A stretch of 64,000 nucleotides of DNA from Ridgeia piscesae (Eukaryota; Annelida; Polychaeta; Sabellida; Siboglinidae): the NCBI GenBank assembly GCA_025642075.2, contig JAODUO010000960.1:62001-126000 (forward strand), given 5' to 3'. Shown piece by piece: positions 266 through 63,700 of the stretch. The notes under the pieces are model-generated. The model was not told where the DNA came from. It saw only the letters and a list, made by a program, of their open reading frames with translations, and searched no databases. The position numbers and the translations under genes are program-made. Numbering within the stretch: the first letter of the stretch is position 1; every line of letters begins with the position of its first letter.

Positions 266-28010
<27,745 letters not shown>

Positions 28011-31868: not shown

Positions 31869-33176
31869 CTAGTCATCGAATTTGATTGATTTTGAAGACG
31901 CTGTATCAATGTGAAACTTTTTGTTCTCCCCAGGTGGCGCTGCATAACCTAGACCTCCACCGCGCTGCTTGTTTATGGTATAACTCAACGCAGTGTCAAA
32001 TTGAGTTTCTAGTGTTTTGTTTAAGAGAGTCTCTTTATCGGCCGTCAGAGCACTGTTAAAACATGCTCCAGTAGCCGCCTTCTGGCCAGAGCCAGCCTTG
32101 AAGCCGCCCAGGAGACGGAAGAACTTACTCTGTCGATCATCAGTTGCAAGTTCCGCAGTTCCCCATTGGCCGAGGAAGCGACGATTACCACCACCTGGTG
32201 TTGTGTCATTGATTTGTTTTGTGGCGTGTGACCTGCTAACCTCTTGTACGACAGTGTCATCTCTGTCAGGTGACGCGACGACACTCTGGTCATTTCCTCC
32301 TTCGTGTTTCCTCTTCTTTTTGGCTTCACATTCTTTATGTTTCTTTTCTTTCTTTGACCTCTTAACATCCGATTGCGCTGGACTTGTGTCCAACTGGACA
32401 CTCACTGGACTACGCTCTCTCTTTCTCTTCTTTTTCATTTCCCCTTCATTTATGGTAATTTCTACAGAACCGAGGTCAATGCTTTCATTGCTGCGTTTGT
32501 GTTTCTTGATGTGTTCAGCTTCATTTGCGGATTCGTCTGCCAACTCGTCTTTCACTCTCTTCTTGTGTTTCTTCTTCTTGTGCGTGCTGTTAAGTTTCTC
32601 GCCTTCTCCATTGCGTTCACTTCCAGCACTCAGCCGGTGGGTCTTTACAACTGCCTCTGTCTCTTCAACCACGCATTTCTTGTGCTTTTTCTTTTTGTGA
32701 GTGCGTTCTTCTGTCAACTCCATGTCACAAGAGCCACCCTCTGTGTCATGAAGCGCATGTTTCCTATGTTTCTTCTTATTGTTCTTGGCGTCAGTTAGTT
32801 GTACATCCAGTCCACTGTCAGGCCCACACTCTCGGCCTTCCCCGTTCTCCTCAATTTCAGTAAGGTTTCTTTGCTCTTTATTCTTTTTATGTTTCTTTGT
32901 CTTCTTTATAAAATGACTTTCTTCCACTAGGCCAACACCAGCTGATGTGGCAATGTGTGCATGTTTATTTTTGTGTTTCTTCTTTGTACCCACTGTCACA
33001 GTAAATTCGATCTCTTGGTCTTGCTGGGTAATTTTCACATCATCCTTTTTCTTCTTCTGTTTGTGTTTGCCTGCTATGACATCTTCACCAAAACCCAATT
33101 CCTCTTCCATCTCAGAAGCTTTACGTTTACTTTTACATTTCTTCATCTTCTTGCTTTCTGCCATCTTCATGTTCAA
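31869..33176 (-). CDS. KNOP1: lysine-rich nucleolar protein 1 (KNOP1)
   Basis: A 435-residue protein in one coding exon. The first ATG (33176) follows an in-frame TAA, so the start is bounded. Residues 1-320 are highly charged, with repeated basic blocks such as KKKHKN, KTKKHKKNK, HKKKKHKKC, MKKKRKRERSP and AKKKRKHEG between acidic stretches, as expected of a nucleolar, RNA-rich-compartment protein. Residues 331-435 form the conserved domain: FLGQWGTAE, SKFFRLLGGFKAG, then GGGLGY and the terminal NKKFHIDTASSKSIKFDD. Human KNOP1 has the equivalent GQWDTA, KFLRLMGGFK, GAGLGF and a matching end. The molecular role of the family is poorly known. Open frames on the opposite strand here are shadows of the Lys/Glu codon bias. 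Confidence 0.93.
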   Translation of the reverse strand: MNMKMAESKKMKKCKSKRKASEMEEELGFGEDVIAGKHKQKKKKDDVKITQQDQEIEFTVTVGTKKKHKNKHAHIATSAGVGLVEESHFIKKTKKHKKNKEQRNLTEIEENGEGRECGPDSGLDVQLTDAKNNKKKHRKHALHDTEGGSCDMELTEERTHKKKKHKKCVVEETEAVVKTHRLSAGSERNGEGEKLNSTHKKKKHKKRVKDELADESANEAEHIKKHKRSNESIDLGSVEITINEGEMKKKRKRERSPVSVQLDTSPAQSDVKRSKKEKKHKECEAKKKRKHEGGNDQSVVASPDRDDTVVQEVSRSHATKQINDTTPGGGNRRFLGQWGTAELATDDRQSKFFRLLGGFKAGSGQKAATGACFNSALTADKETLLNKTLETQFDTALSYTINKQRGGGLGYAAPPGENKKFHIDTASSKSIKFDD

Positions 33177-33204
33177 TACCGTGGATGTCTGTCGTTCTTA
33201 ATAT
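33177..33204 (-). other. KNOP1: KNOP1 5' untranslated part of the coding exon
   Basis: A good acceptor, TTTCTATCCTAG|ATATTAAG on the minus strand, lies 28 bases upstream of the ATG, suggesting a spliced leader exon further right. Confidence 0.45.
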
Positions 33205-49475: not shown

Positions 49476-49752
49476 CAGAATAATATTTGTTAGTGCTAAA
49501 ATTACCAATCTATCTAATCCCGTATATAGAATACCATTATAAAGAAGTGTAGTGGTGATTTGGCGCAGCAGAACCTCGACTGGGGAATGAATTACCTGTG
49601 AACATTCATGCATCCGGGACATTACGTATGTTTAGAAAGTATTTAAAAACATGTCTTATTATTAGCCATTTCAATTAATTCAAATATTGTTTTGAAATGA
49701 CGGACATTGCTTTATAATTTCTTTTTAGTGTCATACACGTTTTATTCAGTGT

Positions 49753-50812
49753 TTATGGAGAGTAGTAGTTGATGGCGAGGTTTCAAACTGGAAATCGGTT
49801 TTGAGTGGAGTACCGCAGGGATCAGTACTGGGACCTATTTTATTCTTAATATATATCAATGATTTGGATGATGACATAACAAGCAATGTGTTGAAGTTTG
49901 CGGACGACACAAAAGTGTTTACGAAAATTAAAAGTGATGCAGATAGACAGCATTTACAAGATGATCTTAATAAGTTGATAGAATGGTCTGAGAAATGGCA
50001 AATGCTGTTTAATTTTGGAAAGTGTAATTGCCTTCACACAGGACATGGGAATGAAGATGCACAATATACAATGGGTGGTACTGTACTAAATACTACCTTA
50101 AAGGAAAAGGACTTAGGGTTAACTATTAGTGCTGACATGAAGGTATCAGAGCAGTGTGGAATTGCATCAGCGAAGGGAAACCAAATTCTTGGATTAATTA
50201 GGCGAAATATAGTGTACAAAGAAAAAGAACCAATAATACCGCTGTGTAAAACAATAGTTAGGCCTCACTTAGAATATTGTATACAAGCATGGAGGCCATA
50301 TCGCAAGAAGGATATTGATATGCTAGAAAGAGTACAAAGGAGAGCAACCAAAATGATACAAAAACTCAGGAATATTAGTTATGAAATGCGTCTAAAAGAA
50401 TGTGGTTTAACAACACTAGAAAGCAGAAGATTGAGAGGAGATCAGATTGAGGGGTTTAAAATATTGAATGGATACGAAAATATTGACAGAAATAGTTTTT
50501 TCACAGTCAAGGAAGAGAGAAGGACTAGAGGACATGGAGTTACATTTAGCAAAGAAGCAGTGTAGACTAGATATTAGAAAAGTTTCATTTTCACAAAGAA
50601 CAGTAAACGAATGGAATAGATTATCAGCTGATTGTGTAGGTGCTAGTAGTGTTAATATATTTAAAAATAAAATCGACATATACCTAAGACGGGCGGGGTA
50701 TACTTAGATAGATAGGTTGGACTCTCGATAAGCCAAATGGCTTCCTAGTCCACCTGCCATCTAGAGTTGAATCTCTAGGTGGCAATCTTGTTAAATCTTG
50801 TTAAATGTTTTA
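49753..50812 (+). mobile_element. 5'-truncated CR1-like non-LTR retrotransposon
   Basis: The reverse transcriptase region begins in mid-domain (WRVVVDGEVSNWKSVLSG). It carries SGVPQGSVLGPILFLIYIND, the active-site FADDT (49897-49911), KEKDLGLTISADM, HLEYCIQAWRPYRKKDIDML and ERVQRRATKMI, the usual order in CR1/jockey-group elements. A 1-base insertion in the T run near 50549 ends the first frame at 50565. The remaining C-terminus (VNEWNRLSADCVGASSVNIF) continues in another frame to 50707. A short 3' region with AATGGCTTCCTAGTCCACCT precedes an AT microsatellite. Confidence 0.88.
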
Positions 50813-57664: not shown

Positions 57665-57766
57665 TCATTTCTTCTTTGCCTTGTTTCCTGAATGTTTTCT
57701 CGCTGTCAAATGCTTGTGTTTTGTCTTGTCTTTCCGTGACCTTTTTCTTTCTTCTTCATCCGGATC
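57665..57766 (-). CDS. DDX49: DDX49 last exon: basic tail
   Basis: Acceptor CATGTTTCAG|GATCCG. Thirty-three codons, [19 protein letters not shown] then a Lys-rich end and TGA. Begins in phase 0 after LILEGK. Confidence 0.92.
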   Translation of the reverse strand, partial: DPDEEERKRSRKDKTKHKHLTARKHSGNKAKKK

Positions 57767-60700
57767 CTGAAACATGATACATTTGTACTGAATACATTCT
57801 AGAATTATTCACATTAGTAAAGAGTCCACCAGTAACCTGACTAAAATGGCACATGTTACACGTAAGTCAATATGCTCACTTGAAACTAACCATGTTGTAA
57901 TGTATGGGTTCTCGATATTTTCCTTGTAGCTTTAAAGGAACATGCAACCATAGTGTTGAAAATGCGTTAAAATCCCTCAAATTCCCACATGCCATTCAAG
58001 ATAGAATGTTGTAACATGTTTATTTTTTTTATTTTACAAGAATGTTATACATCATAAAATTAATCTTGAAATGTATATTTTCACTGACCATGGGTGCTGC
58101 CATTGTTGCCCATTTCACGAAGAACTCACGAAGAGTAACGCGAGAGAATGCGTGAGTGTGACGTAGACTGTCCACAACTCTCAGCGATATAGGTAGTGCG
58201 CAACATGTAAACACTAGCACAGCGACATGATTTGAGTTGTTTTTATGAGTCTTGTGATAATGAAATGCATGGATGTCAAGCATACGAATGCCAAAACAAA
58301 GCAAGAGAAGGATGAGTGAAAGGAAAGAGGGTTTTCCAAATGCCAATAAATTTTCTGCGAAGCGCTAGTTGGCGATGAAATGGCTCCACAATATTGGTAC
58401 GGGTCATACTGTGGAAAAATTCAATTTCAACTGGAAAATGGTTTCCCAGGACTATGTCACCATTGATCTATTAACACATATTTAATGCTCTGTAAGTGTA
58501 ATTAAATGGATGGCTAGATCTCAGACTCAGTGGGTGAAGAGTTCGTTTTTGTTTTGCCCACCCGAGGCGCTAGCGGTTGTGGAAGTGTGACGTCACAGGC
58601 GAAATGTCCAAAATGTCAGCCTCCAGGGAGGTTCACTAATTATCCTTAAAACTGCATAAATCATTTCAGAAAAAATAACAAAATATGGGATATGATTCAA
58701 TGAACATTGTTTAATTGTTTGAGCAATTTTTACTTTTTGGGTTGCATGTTCCTTTTAGTAAATTCCACCAACCACAGAAATTCAAAAACAATGTTGCCAT
58801 GACAATACAACCCGTGATGGGAAAAAAGACAATTTCATAAATCTGGGGAGGGGACGCCTATTACATGGGAACAAATTCCCCGTGATGATGGGATGATTGT
58901 CAATGTTACTTTTTTGCAGTTCTAATTGTGTCCAGAATTCTGCATGTATTCAAACAAATTATGTTATCAGAAGTAAACTTTGCCACACCAGTCTCATTTA
59001 AGAACAGGAAAACAGCAACAAAAGGTCATTAACTGGCCCTTGTTTACTCGCATAAGACATGAGGCAGGGTTGGGTTCAAATACATCATTTTGTATTTGAA
59101 TTAAAAATCAAAAAAGGGCATGTATTTGTATTTGATATTTGGTCTGTATTTGCAAATACAATCAAATACATATAAAATTACCAACAAAAGGTAAAGCATT
59201 GCCTGACATAAACTGGCTCAAGAGTTAAGACAGAATGTTTGTTCACATCGGTGATATGGTCAACAGGAACATATTTGAATCACATTTAAATCAACTTTCA
59301 AAAATGGCAATGTACTTGAATCATATTTGAATAAAACATGGCAGTGTATTTGTATTTGAAATGAAAATTTGTAGTTGTATTTCAATTGAAATCTGGAAAA
59401 GCAATGTATTTGATTTGGCCAGGTTTTATTTGTATTTGATTCCAACCGTGACATGAGGATATAGCAGCCTCACTTACCTTGCCCTCGAGGATGAGCTTCT
59501 TGCGTTTGTTGATTTCCTTCTTCTCTCCAAAGTCCTGCTCATCCAGACTCTGCCGGAACCAAGCAGCAGTGTAGTGACACAGGATTGTGAACTCACCTTG
59601 TCTGGTGGTCACCTGGGACTATACATTGATTAATACTTTAATGGGTTTGGGGCTGGAACTCCACTGGCTGGTATACAGTCTCCAAATTGGTTGCTTTTTA
59701 ATATAATTTTGATATTTCACTAGTCTTAAAACTGATTTATGTTACCACAATAACCGCATTAGACATTATTAGAATTTTATCTCTCTGGGTTATATATTCC
59801 ATTTATGTTTTATAATCTAGGGGTGCTAAATGTTTAAATAAAATATCTGACATGCCCTAATTTTATATATTCAGATCATAGTCTAATTACAGTTTTATTA
59901 TCCTACTTTATTTTTAAGATTGTTAAAGACATTCCAATTAGTTATATTTCATATATAGTTACATATAGTTATAATTTCATATATAATTTCACTAATATAT
60001 TTAAAAGAAATTGTTTTGTTAGTTGTAATGGTCTTATTGTACTTTTCTGCCACTAAAGCTGCCACAGAGAAGTAAACTTTATTATTATTTGACACATTCG
60101 CTTGGTAGTGCGTTCCATGGTGTGACTATTCGCTGAATAAACAACTTATGTATCACTGATATTACAAGAGCTAGAGACTCACTATCTCAGCTTCCCTCTT
60201 GGCCACAGCCACCTCAGTGAGGATCTTCGTCACCTCATCCTCCTTCACCTCATACTCCACTAGCTTCATGTCTGCAACAAACACAGTCACATTTTGTTTA
60301 CTTCTTCCCACTCAGCTTTGTCTGTGCAGAGTAACACGACGTTTAGTGTCCGTGGATATGACACTCAGATGTCTTCACCCCAGGGCGATTCTCTGGGTAT
60401 AACGCATGTCTTGTGAAAAAAGGTCAGTTAGTAAACAGTTCACTGTCGTTGTATGTTGTTTACGTAACTGTGCTGGCGCGAAGAATGAAATCAACCTGTA
60501 TTATCACCCGATCAAAAATACAATTTAAAAAGCATGTGGTGGCAATTTATCAAATTTCGGCATGTCCAAATAAAGTTGTTTTTTTTTTAAATTTTTAATT
60601 TGCATTAGTGTCCTGGGGAAAATGCTTATTTTTAGATTACAAAATGTACCATCTTACATAAACATAATTTATTAGTTATTATTGTCGAATGATACTTATT

Positions 60701-63700
60701 TGGGTGAAATTATATAGCATTTACTACATTCTGCTTTGATACTCTTCAAATATTCTATCCTTAGTTTAACCTCATTTAGAAAAAATTATGACTGTTGTTT
60801 TGGCACAAAAATGTGAATGCATTTACCACATTTTGGCATTTAAAGGGATATTTCCCAGTTCAACATATTGTCAAACAAACATACCATCTATGATTGGGTT
60901 ATCATTCCGCTCAAAACCCGTACAATATTCTGATTTCATTTTGTTTAGACAATTTGGTGAACCGTCTCATACCCCATTAAAAATATTCCCGAGCACATGG
61001 CTGGATGTACAGAACATGTCAGCACTTACTTATTCTTTCTTTGATTTCATGGACCAACTTGACATGACTGGATGTACAGAACGTGTCAGCACTTACTTAT
61101 TCTTTCTTCCACCGCATGGACCAACTTGACATGACTGGATGTACAGAACATGTCAGCACTTACTTATTCTTTCTTTGATTGCATGGACCAACTTGACACG
61201 ACTGGATGTACAGAACGTGTCAGCACTTACTTATTCTTTCTTTGATTGCATGGACCAACTTGACATGACTGGATGTACAGAACATGTCAGCACTTACTTA
61301 TTCTTTCTTTGATTGCATGGACCAACTTGACACGACTGGATGTACAGAACGTGTCAGCACTTACTTATTCTTTCTTCCACGCATGGACCAACTTGACATG
61401 ACTGGATGTACAGAACGTGTCAGCACTTACTTATTCTTTCTTTGATTGCATGGACCAACTTGACATGACTGGATGTACAGAACTGTCAGCACTTACTTAT
61501 TCTTTCTTTGATTGCATGGACCAACTTGACATGACTGGATGTACAGAACGTGTCAGCACTTACTTATTCTTTCTTCCACCGCATGGACCAACTTGACATG
61601 ACTGGATGTACAGAACTGTCAGCACTTACTTATTCTTTCTTTGATTGCATGGACCAACTTGACATGACTGGATGTACAGAACGTGTCAGCACTTACTTAT
61701 TCTTTCTTTGATTGCATGGACCAACTTGACATGACTGGATGTACAGAACGTGTCAGCACTTACTTATTCTTTCTTCCACGCATGGACCAACTTGACATGA
61801 CTGGATGTACAGAACGTGTCAGCACTTACTTATTCTTTCTTCCACCGCATGGACCAACTTGATATGACTGGATGTACAGAACGTGTCAGCACTTACTTAT
61901 TCTTTCTTTGATTGCATGGACCAACTTGACATGACTGGATATACAGAACGTGTCAGCACTTACTTATTCTTTCTTCCACCGCATGGACCAACTTGACATC
62001 AAATTGAGTGACAAGGGTTATGGCAAGTCCCCCACGACCTGAAAGGTACATAAATTTTTTGGGTTTTATTGATTACAAAATGATCAAACATCCAGAATTT
62101 CATTGTATTTATGTTGACATGTTATTTATTTCTAAAATGTCATGAAATGCAGCAACAAATCTAACACATAAAAAGATTTCAAGTTTTAAGGGTGGACACC
62201 CTAGATGAAATTGCCCCAGTTGTTTCATGCGAGATTATAATAGCTTAAAAAAGTTAACTTTTATAACAATTACATACCTGTATCATCTGTATATTTCTCA
62301 TAAACAATATCTTTACAATTTCTGCATTTGGAAAAAGGGTAATTAGGGTATCTCTAGGAGTAAGTAAGCTACTGAAATAAAGTTTTGAATGTTGCTTTTA
62401 ATATTTTCTACTCTGTCTAATGACCATATAAAAGTTTTTTAATACCCTTTATCAATAAATGAGTAAAATGCGTCATTATGATTACCACTCTGGTCAGGTA
62501 TGAAATGTTTACTAAACATGGATTTTCAAGAATTATAACTACTGTTCAACATAATATATTTGCTCAAGATAATGGTCATTTTGTTTGTTACCACAGAAAT
62601 ATCTGACTGAAAAAATATCAATTTATTTTTACCTAGTAAGATCCATTCTATACTACACAACAAAAATAGAATGTTTGCATCAATCAATGTTCGCACATTT
62701 TTCAAGATTTGAAATTCAAGTATATTCAAGACTTTTCAAGGCTTTTTAAACCAAACAAATTTTAATGATAGATGTAATTTTAACCACAATAATTCACATA
62801 TGTTTGACATAATTTCAGTCATTTCACATTGCTTCACATCATTACTGTGACCTAATTTACAGTTACAGACCAATGTCACACAAGTTGTTTGGCTGTCCTG
62901 ACGCTGATGATGAGATAACTTTGAGACTAAGACTTGTCACCCACTGGCTGTTCAACTACGGCTATTATTCATCATGATACTTGTGCCAAAAATAATTTTC
63001 ACTGACCAAATAATATTCAAGACTACTTTGCAAGATTCAAGAATGTCAAGGTTTTTAGTTAAGTCCACTACAATTCAAGGCTTTTCAAGACTTTCAAGGT
63101 TCAGTATGGACGTAGATAACTAGAACAGACCAGCCCTTGCAGTGCGTCCGACCCTGTGAATGTAGTCCTTGGGTCTGTGCGGTACATTATGGTTGATGAC
63201 CAGGTCAACTGTGGGGATGTCCAAACCTCTGAAAACACACAGGTCTAGTTGTGATGTAATGCAGTACCTCAATCTTAGTTGTTCACCGGCTGAGACAGAA
63301 CAGGCATATACAGTTTTCCTACTAAAAAAACTTGTTGTTAGATAGTAAATAACCAATCTTTCCAGCTATCAAATTTTAAATAAAAAGGTAAGTTTTTATA
63401 CAGCATTTTTAAGTAGTCCTCACGACTGATCAAGGCGCTTTACTGAGATGGTTTTGATTGAACAGGTCAGCCAGGGGACTGACCTGTTCAATCACAACCA
63501 TCTCAACTTCTCTGGGAAGCATCCTGCTATGCCGCAATTAATCCGCGAAGGTTGTTTGTTCAAATAGCCACCACTGTCTATAGCCAGGTACTAATTCATA
63601 CAACTGGGTAAACTGGAGCAGCGTAGAGTGAATAAACTTGCTCAAGGTTTGGCATGGAATTTGAACCCAGGTTCTATCAGTCGAGAGTTCAAACTTCTAG

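What the first reader, a model, noticed from the sequence alone, without database searches (positions are those of the whole stretch)
60999..62038. A minisatellite made of an exon end plus its splice donor: 15 tandem 5' splice sites in DDX49
The 66-67-bp unit contains the last roughly 35 coding bases of the exon at 61964-62038 fused to the start of its intron, each with an intact AATAA|GTAAGT. The spliceosome is offered 15 near-identical donors. Use of a distal one would add 66-67 bases per unit to the mRNA, usually breaking the frame. Units of exon-identical type (CCACCGCATGG) are interspersed with a drifted type (TTGATTGCATGG), which suggests gene conversion or repeated re-seeding from the live exon. 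Array length could therefore tune helicase output.
Basis: partly seen in the sequence, partly recalled or inferred. Interest (0 to 1): 0.75.

Follow-up and report, generated by a model that had tools for sequence, protein, structure and literature searches.

The report
Tandem decoy splice donors in tubeworm
In a gene of what is very probably the vent tubeworm Ridgeia piscesae, the end of one exon and its splice signal have been copied head to tail fourteen times into the next intron, a kind of repeat known from lancelets as a "mirage", most likely an unstable duplication that the splicing machinery has to ignore rather than a regulator.

Summary
On the minus strand 15 units of 66-67 bp (60995-61999), each with an identical TAA|GTAAGTGC donor, start with the last 36 coding bases of the DDX49 exon 62038-61964. 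The array looks like a tandem duplication between ATGT tetranucleotides in exon and intron. The window is very probably Ridgeia piscesae, a vestimentiferan annelid: the peptides of lamin exons 2-9 (416 residues) occur unchanged in a Ridgeia protein, whose gene model also holds peptides of a second exon-edge array in this window (lamin exon 6). The class is known: "mirages" of amphioxus, reported there not to disturb splicing. Here it is in an annelid; in a census of 30 boundaries of two genes one is decisive and three are weak; 5 of 5 arrays over 1 kb lie in the donor-side 22% of their intron. The tuning claim has no support: each of the 14 distal donors gives the same stop (EERISKC*), and decoy donors of the older lamin array show no clear constraint. 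Re-seeding is not needed: 0 of 14 copies carry the exon unit's private base. No RNA evidence was available.

The parts
61964..62038 (-). DDX49 exon (GRGGLAITLVTQFDVKLVHAVEERI + A); its last 36 bases start the array
60995..61999 (-). 15-unit exon-edge minisatellite, 66-67 bp units, unit 1 = live exon end plus live donor
61958..61968 (-). live donor AATAA|GTAAGT (unit 1)
61024..61901 (-). stretch holding the 14 decoy donors, all identical to the live one over -3..+8 (TAA|GTAAGTGC)
61996..61999 (-). ATGT at the exon-side breakpoint
60995..60998 (-). ATGT at the intron-side breakpoint (array exit)
60183..60271 (-). next DDX49 exon (NMKLVEYEVKEDEVTKILTEVAVAKREAEI)
59478..59549 (-). DDX49 exon SLDEQDFGEKKEINKRKKLILEGK
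57665..57766 (-). likely last DDX49 exon DPDEEERKRSRK...KKK stop (by reading frame, acceptor and similarity of its start only)
17136..17356 (+). lamin exon 6, ends GAGAGTCG|GTGAGT
17351..19726 (+). second exon-edge array: lamin exon 6 donor, 46-bp units, 51 GAGTYR anchors of which 38 (live one included) are followed by GTRAGT; at least one further unit lacks the anchor
22843..23072 (+). acceptor-side array of about 23 bp with 8 TAG|GTG, the last being the acceptor of lamin exon 9 (23068); weaker case
14017..14091 (+). possible nascent donor repeat at lamin exon 3: CAGGTAC at 14017, 14034, 14075; marginal

Best explanation
The feature is a mirage-type minisatellite. A segment covering the last 36 bases of a DDX49 exon and the first 31 or so bases of its intron was duplicated head to tail between two ATGT tetranucleotides (inferred from the breakpoints), then expanded to 15 units by unequal exchange or slippage of one- to several-unit blocks (inferred). 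The copies lie inside the intron and are removed with it. Splicing most likely uses the first donor, the only one of the 15 that keeps the protein open (the reading is shown; the use is inferred, no RNA seen). Leaky use of a decoy would end the protein at EERISKC* and, with exon junctions still downstream, would probably mark the mRNA for decay (general knowledge); the array is then at most a mild, length-dependent cost. Similar arrays at other boundaries of the same window hint at a recurrent duplication process at exon edges in this genome.
For: 15 identical donors, 0.06 expected. The boundary matches its neighbourhood at score 64, reached by 0 of 2000 array-free segments; exon part alone 0 of 1500. 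Entry TTTGATGTCAAG, junction AGTCATGTCAAG, exit AGCCATGTGCTC. All 14 distal donors give a stop after 28 residues of this exon. In the lamin array the decoy hexamer shows no clear constraint. Amphioxus globin and Adh3 mirages are said not to interfere with regular splicing, and Adh and TnC ones not to give aberrant mRNAs.
Against: No RNA data. All 15 donors are still perfect in DDX49; with so few variable columns that is expected without selection (my estimate about 0.4), but selection is not excluded. The lamin constraint test depends on scoring: raw, the donor hexamer varies more than the other columns (0.074 against 0.051); with A and G at +3 counted as equal, a little less (0.039). The live donor's U1 pairing is ninth of the 15 real donors listed, so it does not outrank its copies by strength. 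Two genes of one window only. The assembly may have sized the array wrongly.
Confidence: 0.8

Rival explanations
1. The array is a splicing rheostat: copy number sets how often a decoy donor is used, and decoy use sends DDX49 mRNA to decay, so array length sets helicase output.
For: Decoys are identical to the live donor over -3..+8 and a doubled unit carries stops in all three frames, which would make decoy use an efficient off-switch.
Against: The sister array in lamin has lost GTRAGT in 13 of 50 decoys with no clear sign of constraint, though the test depends on scoring; amphioxus mirages are reported to be spliced normally; no transcript evidence.
Confidence: 0.07
2. An intron-gain or exon-gain intermediate: unit parts TGCTGAC (branch-like) and TACATCCAG (acceptor-like) plus the donor let a unit act as a new small exon or a new intron end.
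For: Each unit has a branch-like motif that starts 24 bases before the end of an AG whose pyrimidine content, 0.59, is within the range 0.41-0.82 of 15 real acceptors in the window (one unit was scored). The Ridgeia lamin gene model did absorb units of the sister array, but that is a prediction, not RNA. Intron gain from mirages was proposed for amphioxus globins and from a boundary-crossing duplication in potato.
Against: The doubled unit has stops in all three frames; the donor-to-AG distance in one unit is 29 bases by the sequence, below usual metazoan introns (recalled).
Confidence: 0.06
3. An assembly artefact: a true short repeat inflated, or haplotypes strung together.
For: Genome heterozygosity of R. 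piscesae is reported as 1.2%; no reads could be inspected.
Against: Units differ by shared point variants and indels in repeated combinations, entry and exit breakpoints are clean, and the window holds five arrays over 1 kb with different units. The Ridgeia lamin model may come from the same assembly, so it is not independent.
Confidence: 0.07

Closest known systems
Mirages of amphioxus (Adh3 in B. floridae and B. lanceolatum; globins BflGb6 and BflGb9; PMC3087553, passages read; the Adh3 paper itself was not held)
   Same: Minisatellite-like tandem copies spanning an exon-intron boundary, donor or acceptor side, many units keeping AG/GT signals; exonic plus intronic part; reported there: length instability and no interference with regular splicing.
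   Different: Here an annelid, not a cephalochordate; 15 units and 51 anchors against 6 and 3 units in the BflGb6 haplotypes; unit 66-67 and 46 bp against 150-160 bp (globins) and 10-72 bp (Adh3). Splicing and polymorphism could not be tested here.
PGBD5 tandem repeats of lancelet (PMC3902484, one passage read)
   Different: Imperfect; a 3 x 108 bp triplication rather than a long array.
Intron gain by tandem duplication across an intron-exon boundary, potato RdRp (PMC4974935, passages read)
   Same: Duplication of a boundary-crossing segment carrying splice signals.
   Different: A duplication that became a new intron; here many copies lie inside an existing intron.
Earthworm metallothionein intron-1 minisatellites and exon-4 duplications (PMC12783039, passages read)
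   Same: Annelid genes with a long intronic minisatellite; extra exon copies absent from the final transcript.
   Different: The passages read do not say that the repeat unit spans a splice site.

Membership tests
Mirage (exon-intron-boundary minisatellite) | Tandem units contain exon and intron sequence across one boundary | tested here: met
   36 exonic + about 31 intronic bases per unit; exon part alone 0 of 1500 null
Mirage (exon-intron-boundary minisatellite) | Splice signals kept in many units | tested here: met
   15 of 15 in DDX49; 38 of 51 anchors in lamin
Mirage (exon-intron-boundary minisatellite) | Length instability between haplotypes | not testable with these tools
   one haplotype only
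Mirage (exon-intron-boundary minisatellite) | Normal splicing despite decoys | not testable with these tools
   no RNA data
Mirage (exon-intron-boundary minisatellite) | Found in cephalochordates (taxon of the mirage cases in the passages read; a matter of where it was found, not a structural criterion) | tested here: not met
   very probably Ridgeia piscesae, Annelida
Intron gain by tandem duplication | Duplicated splice signals used to remove a new intron | not testable with these tools
   no RNA; unit inclusion would stop translation

The most novel reading that the evidence does not exclude
Exon edges are preferred birthplaces of minisatellites in vestimentiferan tubeworms: a process tied to transcription or splicing (for example processing of stalled forks or R-loops at donors) repeatedly duplicates boundary segments, so that many genes carry donor-side arrays that lengthen introns, mislead gene models and now and then leak into mRNA.
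Probability: 0.15. Interest if true: 0.7.

Novelty: new member of a known kind. Interest (0 to 1): 0.42.

Why it matters
Mirages were met here only in lancelet papers. A strong example in an annelid, with a second one in the other multi-exon gene recognised in the window, suggests that exon-edge minisatellites are a wider animal phenomenon. They offer a natural test of how the spliceosome picks one of 15 identical donors, and they corrupt annotation: the public Ridgeia lamin model contains array-derived residues.

Tried and rejected
Amphioxus as source: my first guess because of the mirage literature; rejected by the lamin match. Three of the five long arrays (A48 11231-13677, A34 23322-25434, A52 26358-27550) as mirages: their exon parts alone do not stand out (1292, 703 and 1205 of 1500); with 30 intronic bases added A48 gives 23 and A52 82 of 1500, from intronic matches. 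Exon-only test for the lamin exon 6 array is not significant (354 of 1500), because only about 8 exonic bases are shared; both boundary-spanning tests are (0 of 1500). Exon-only test for the exon 9 acceptor array: 280 of 2000, not significant; boundary test 7 of 2000 (this null was not cleared of arrays). The first census used a null that fell partly inside arrays, and even the DDX49 donor reached only 0.131 there; redone with arrays masked. Constraint on lamin decoys: one search compared the raw hexamer with 34 columns; redid it three ways with mixed but never clear results. Rfam at gathering scores: nothing. Viral and genome contigs: no match for a 26-base unit core. The own-genome search did not complete.

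Full report
What was claimed.

AATAAGTAAGT is found 15 times in 64 kb, all on the minus strand inside this array, against 0.06 expected. TRF gives 60995-61999, period 67, 15.1 copies, with a three-unit period of 200 scoring best. I cut the array into units: lengths 66 or 67; units 2-15 are 87-98.5% identical to unit 1, the live exon end. Ten of 67 columns vary. Over positions -3 to +8 all 15 donors are identical, TAA|GTAAGTGC. If the variation counts as about six independent spots, the chance that all miss a 9-base donor is roughly 0.4 (my estimate, no call), so this identity is not evidence of selection.

How it arose. The exon entry reads TTTGATGTCAAG, the unit junction AGTCATGTCAAG, and the array exit AGCCATGTGCTC; the two ATGT lie at 61999-61996 and 60998-60995. 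The junction equals the exit side up to ATGT (but for one base) and the exon after it, as a tandem duplication between two ATGT tetranucleotides would leave. The unit thus holds 36 exonic and about 31 intronic bases. Expansion by block duplication is inferred from shared variants: a G at column 65 followed by a unit with T at column 47 occurs twice in a row (units 10-11 and 12-13).

Re-seeding from the live exon. The exon unit alone has T at column 56; 0 of 14 other units have it. Three of these 14 equal the exon over its coding part, two more but for a deletion, nine are of the drifted type. The drifted type would encode HAIKE (HEIKE in unit 15). Of the 120 DDX49 relatives listed, 81 fitted the pattern that I used to read this position (39 did not and were not counted), and 81 of 81 have Glu where the drifted type has Lys. 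So the drifted type was probably born in the array.

Gene context. The exon reads GRGGLAITLVTQFDVKLVHAVEERI; following exons are at 60271-60183, 59549-59478 and, by reading frame and acceptor only, 57766-57665. Helicase_C is found at E 4.5e-25.

Consequences of a wrong donor. I spliced each of donors 1-15 to the next two exons. Donor 1 stays open. All 14 others stop after 28 residues of this exon, at EERISKC*, because ATA AGT AAG TGC TGA follows the live donor. In a doubled unit all three frames carry stops. With exons still downstream, decay of such mRNA is the likely fate (general knowledge). Use of a decoy would therefore not make a longer helicase. By pairing with the U1 tail the live donor (-6.7) is ninth of 15 real donors, and 4.9% of 3000 sampled GT sites of the window are at least as strong.

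Whose genome. An 11-exon lamin gene, 607 codons with a CTLM end, can be read at 266-28010. Its best-scoring relative is Ridgeia piscesae NP493_960g01001 (7986 candidates scored of 5.8 billion proteins), a vestimentiferan annelid. The peptides of exons 2 to 9, 416 residues, are all found unchanged in it; the model lacks exons 1, 10 and 11 and has a few other residues in their place. It also holds 89 residues between exons 6 and 7, of which 85 match, in pieces of 16-32 residues, translations of a lamin intron array in this window and of the stretch at 19741. So the window is very probably Ridgeia piscesae, and its gene model took array units for exons. The model may come from the same assembly.

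The array is not alone. The lamin exon 6 donor, GAGAGTCG|GTGAGT, opens a 46-bp array up to 19726; two boundary-spanning segments match the first 1500 bases of the array better than 1500 of 1500 random segments, though the exon part alone does not stand out (354 of 1500) since only some eight exonic bases are shared. Of 51 GAGTYR anchors 38 are followed by GTRAGT, the live one included; 13 of 50 decoys have lost it; at least one unit without the anchor (17493, itself with GTGAGT) was not counted. Are the decoys conserved? In the 47 of 50 units that are 46 bp long, the donor hexamer has mean minor-base frequency 0.074 against 0.058 for 34 other columns or 0.051 for all 40 others; 32 of 41 six-column windows, its own included, are at least as conserved. 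Most of that is the +3 base, where A and G both make good donors: counted as equal, the hexamer comes to 0.039, and 16 of 40 other windows are still at least as conserved. With purines and pyrimidines pooled everywhere it is 0.028 against 0.021. There is no clear constraint on the decoys, and no strong proof of its absence.

Further boundaries. Exon 9's acceptor is the last of eight TAG|GTG in a 23-bp array; boundary match 7 of 2000, exon part alone 280 of 2000. Exon 3's donor is followed by two further CAGGTAC. In a census of 30 boundaries of the two genes with a null outside arrays (the acceptor of the likely last DDX49 exon was not included), DDX49 exon 61964-62038 donor scored 0 of 2000, lamin exon 9 acceptor 28, lamin exon 3 donor 72, lamin exon 6 donor 83; the other 26 had 297 or more. 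About 1.5 of 30 are expected below 5% by chance, so only the DDX49 case is decisive in that test.

Donor side. All five arrays over 1 kb listed by TRF lie in introns of the two genes, at relative positions 0.14, 0.22, 0.15, 0.10 and 0 from the donor when the array is left out. Under uniform placement five of five within 0.22 has probability 0.0005; this is post hoc and from one window. Three of the five show no exon homology.

What is known. Papers of the held library describe the class in amphioxus. [quoted passage not shown] PMC3902484 (passage read) adds PGBD5 and cites Adh and TnC. For annelids, the search annelid/minisatellite/intron/splice (15 of 545 papers listed) showed an earthworm metallothionein paper with intronic minisatellites and extra exon copies absent from the final transcript (PMC12783039, passages read), not shown there to span a splice site. 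A C. elegans paper links a minisatellite to multiple alternative splicing, with no occurrence of the word donor (PMC4039745, passages read). The Ridgeia genome paper (PMC9921365, passages read) has tandem repeats in its methods and reference list in the places shown; it reports that introns are on average longer than in three other tubeworms, which intronic arrays could help explain (inference). I found no report of a mirage in an annelid in the searches and 41 of this open-licence library, of which several listings were capped and only the papers named here were opened.

Verdict. A real and clean exon-edge minisatellite, a new member of a known kind in what seems a new phylum for it, with silent decoys as the best reading.

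Noticed in passing
17351-19726: Lamin exon 6 donor array: 51 anchors, 38 followed by GTRAGT; units were absorbed as coding sequence into the public Ridgeia lamin gene model.
   Followed up: yes
22843-23072: 23-bp array whose last unit holds the acceptor of lamin exon 9; eight TAG|GTG in a row.
   Followed up: partly
14017-14091: Three CAGGTAC at and just after the lamin exon 3 donor, perhaps a nascent donor repeat.
   Followed up: partly
11231-13677, 23322-25434, 26358-27550: Three further minisatellites (48, 34 and 52 bp; 51, 62 and 23 copies) in lamin introns 2, 9 and 10, all close behind the donor but without exon homology.
   Followed up: partly
266-28010: Complete 11-exon lamin gene ending in a CTLM CaaX box; without their arrays introns 6 and 2 would be only 90 and 223 bases.
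   Followed up: partly
31869-33197: Lysine-rich 442-residue ORF on the minus strand with a C-terminal SMAP domain (Pfam PF15477).
   Followed up: no
49729-50565: Reverse transcriptase ORF (RVT_1, E 5.6e-14), probably a retroelement remnant.
   Followed up: no
5355-5614: Perfect (CA)130 in lamin intron 1.
   Followed up: no
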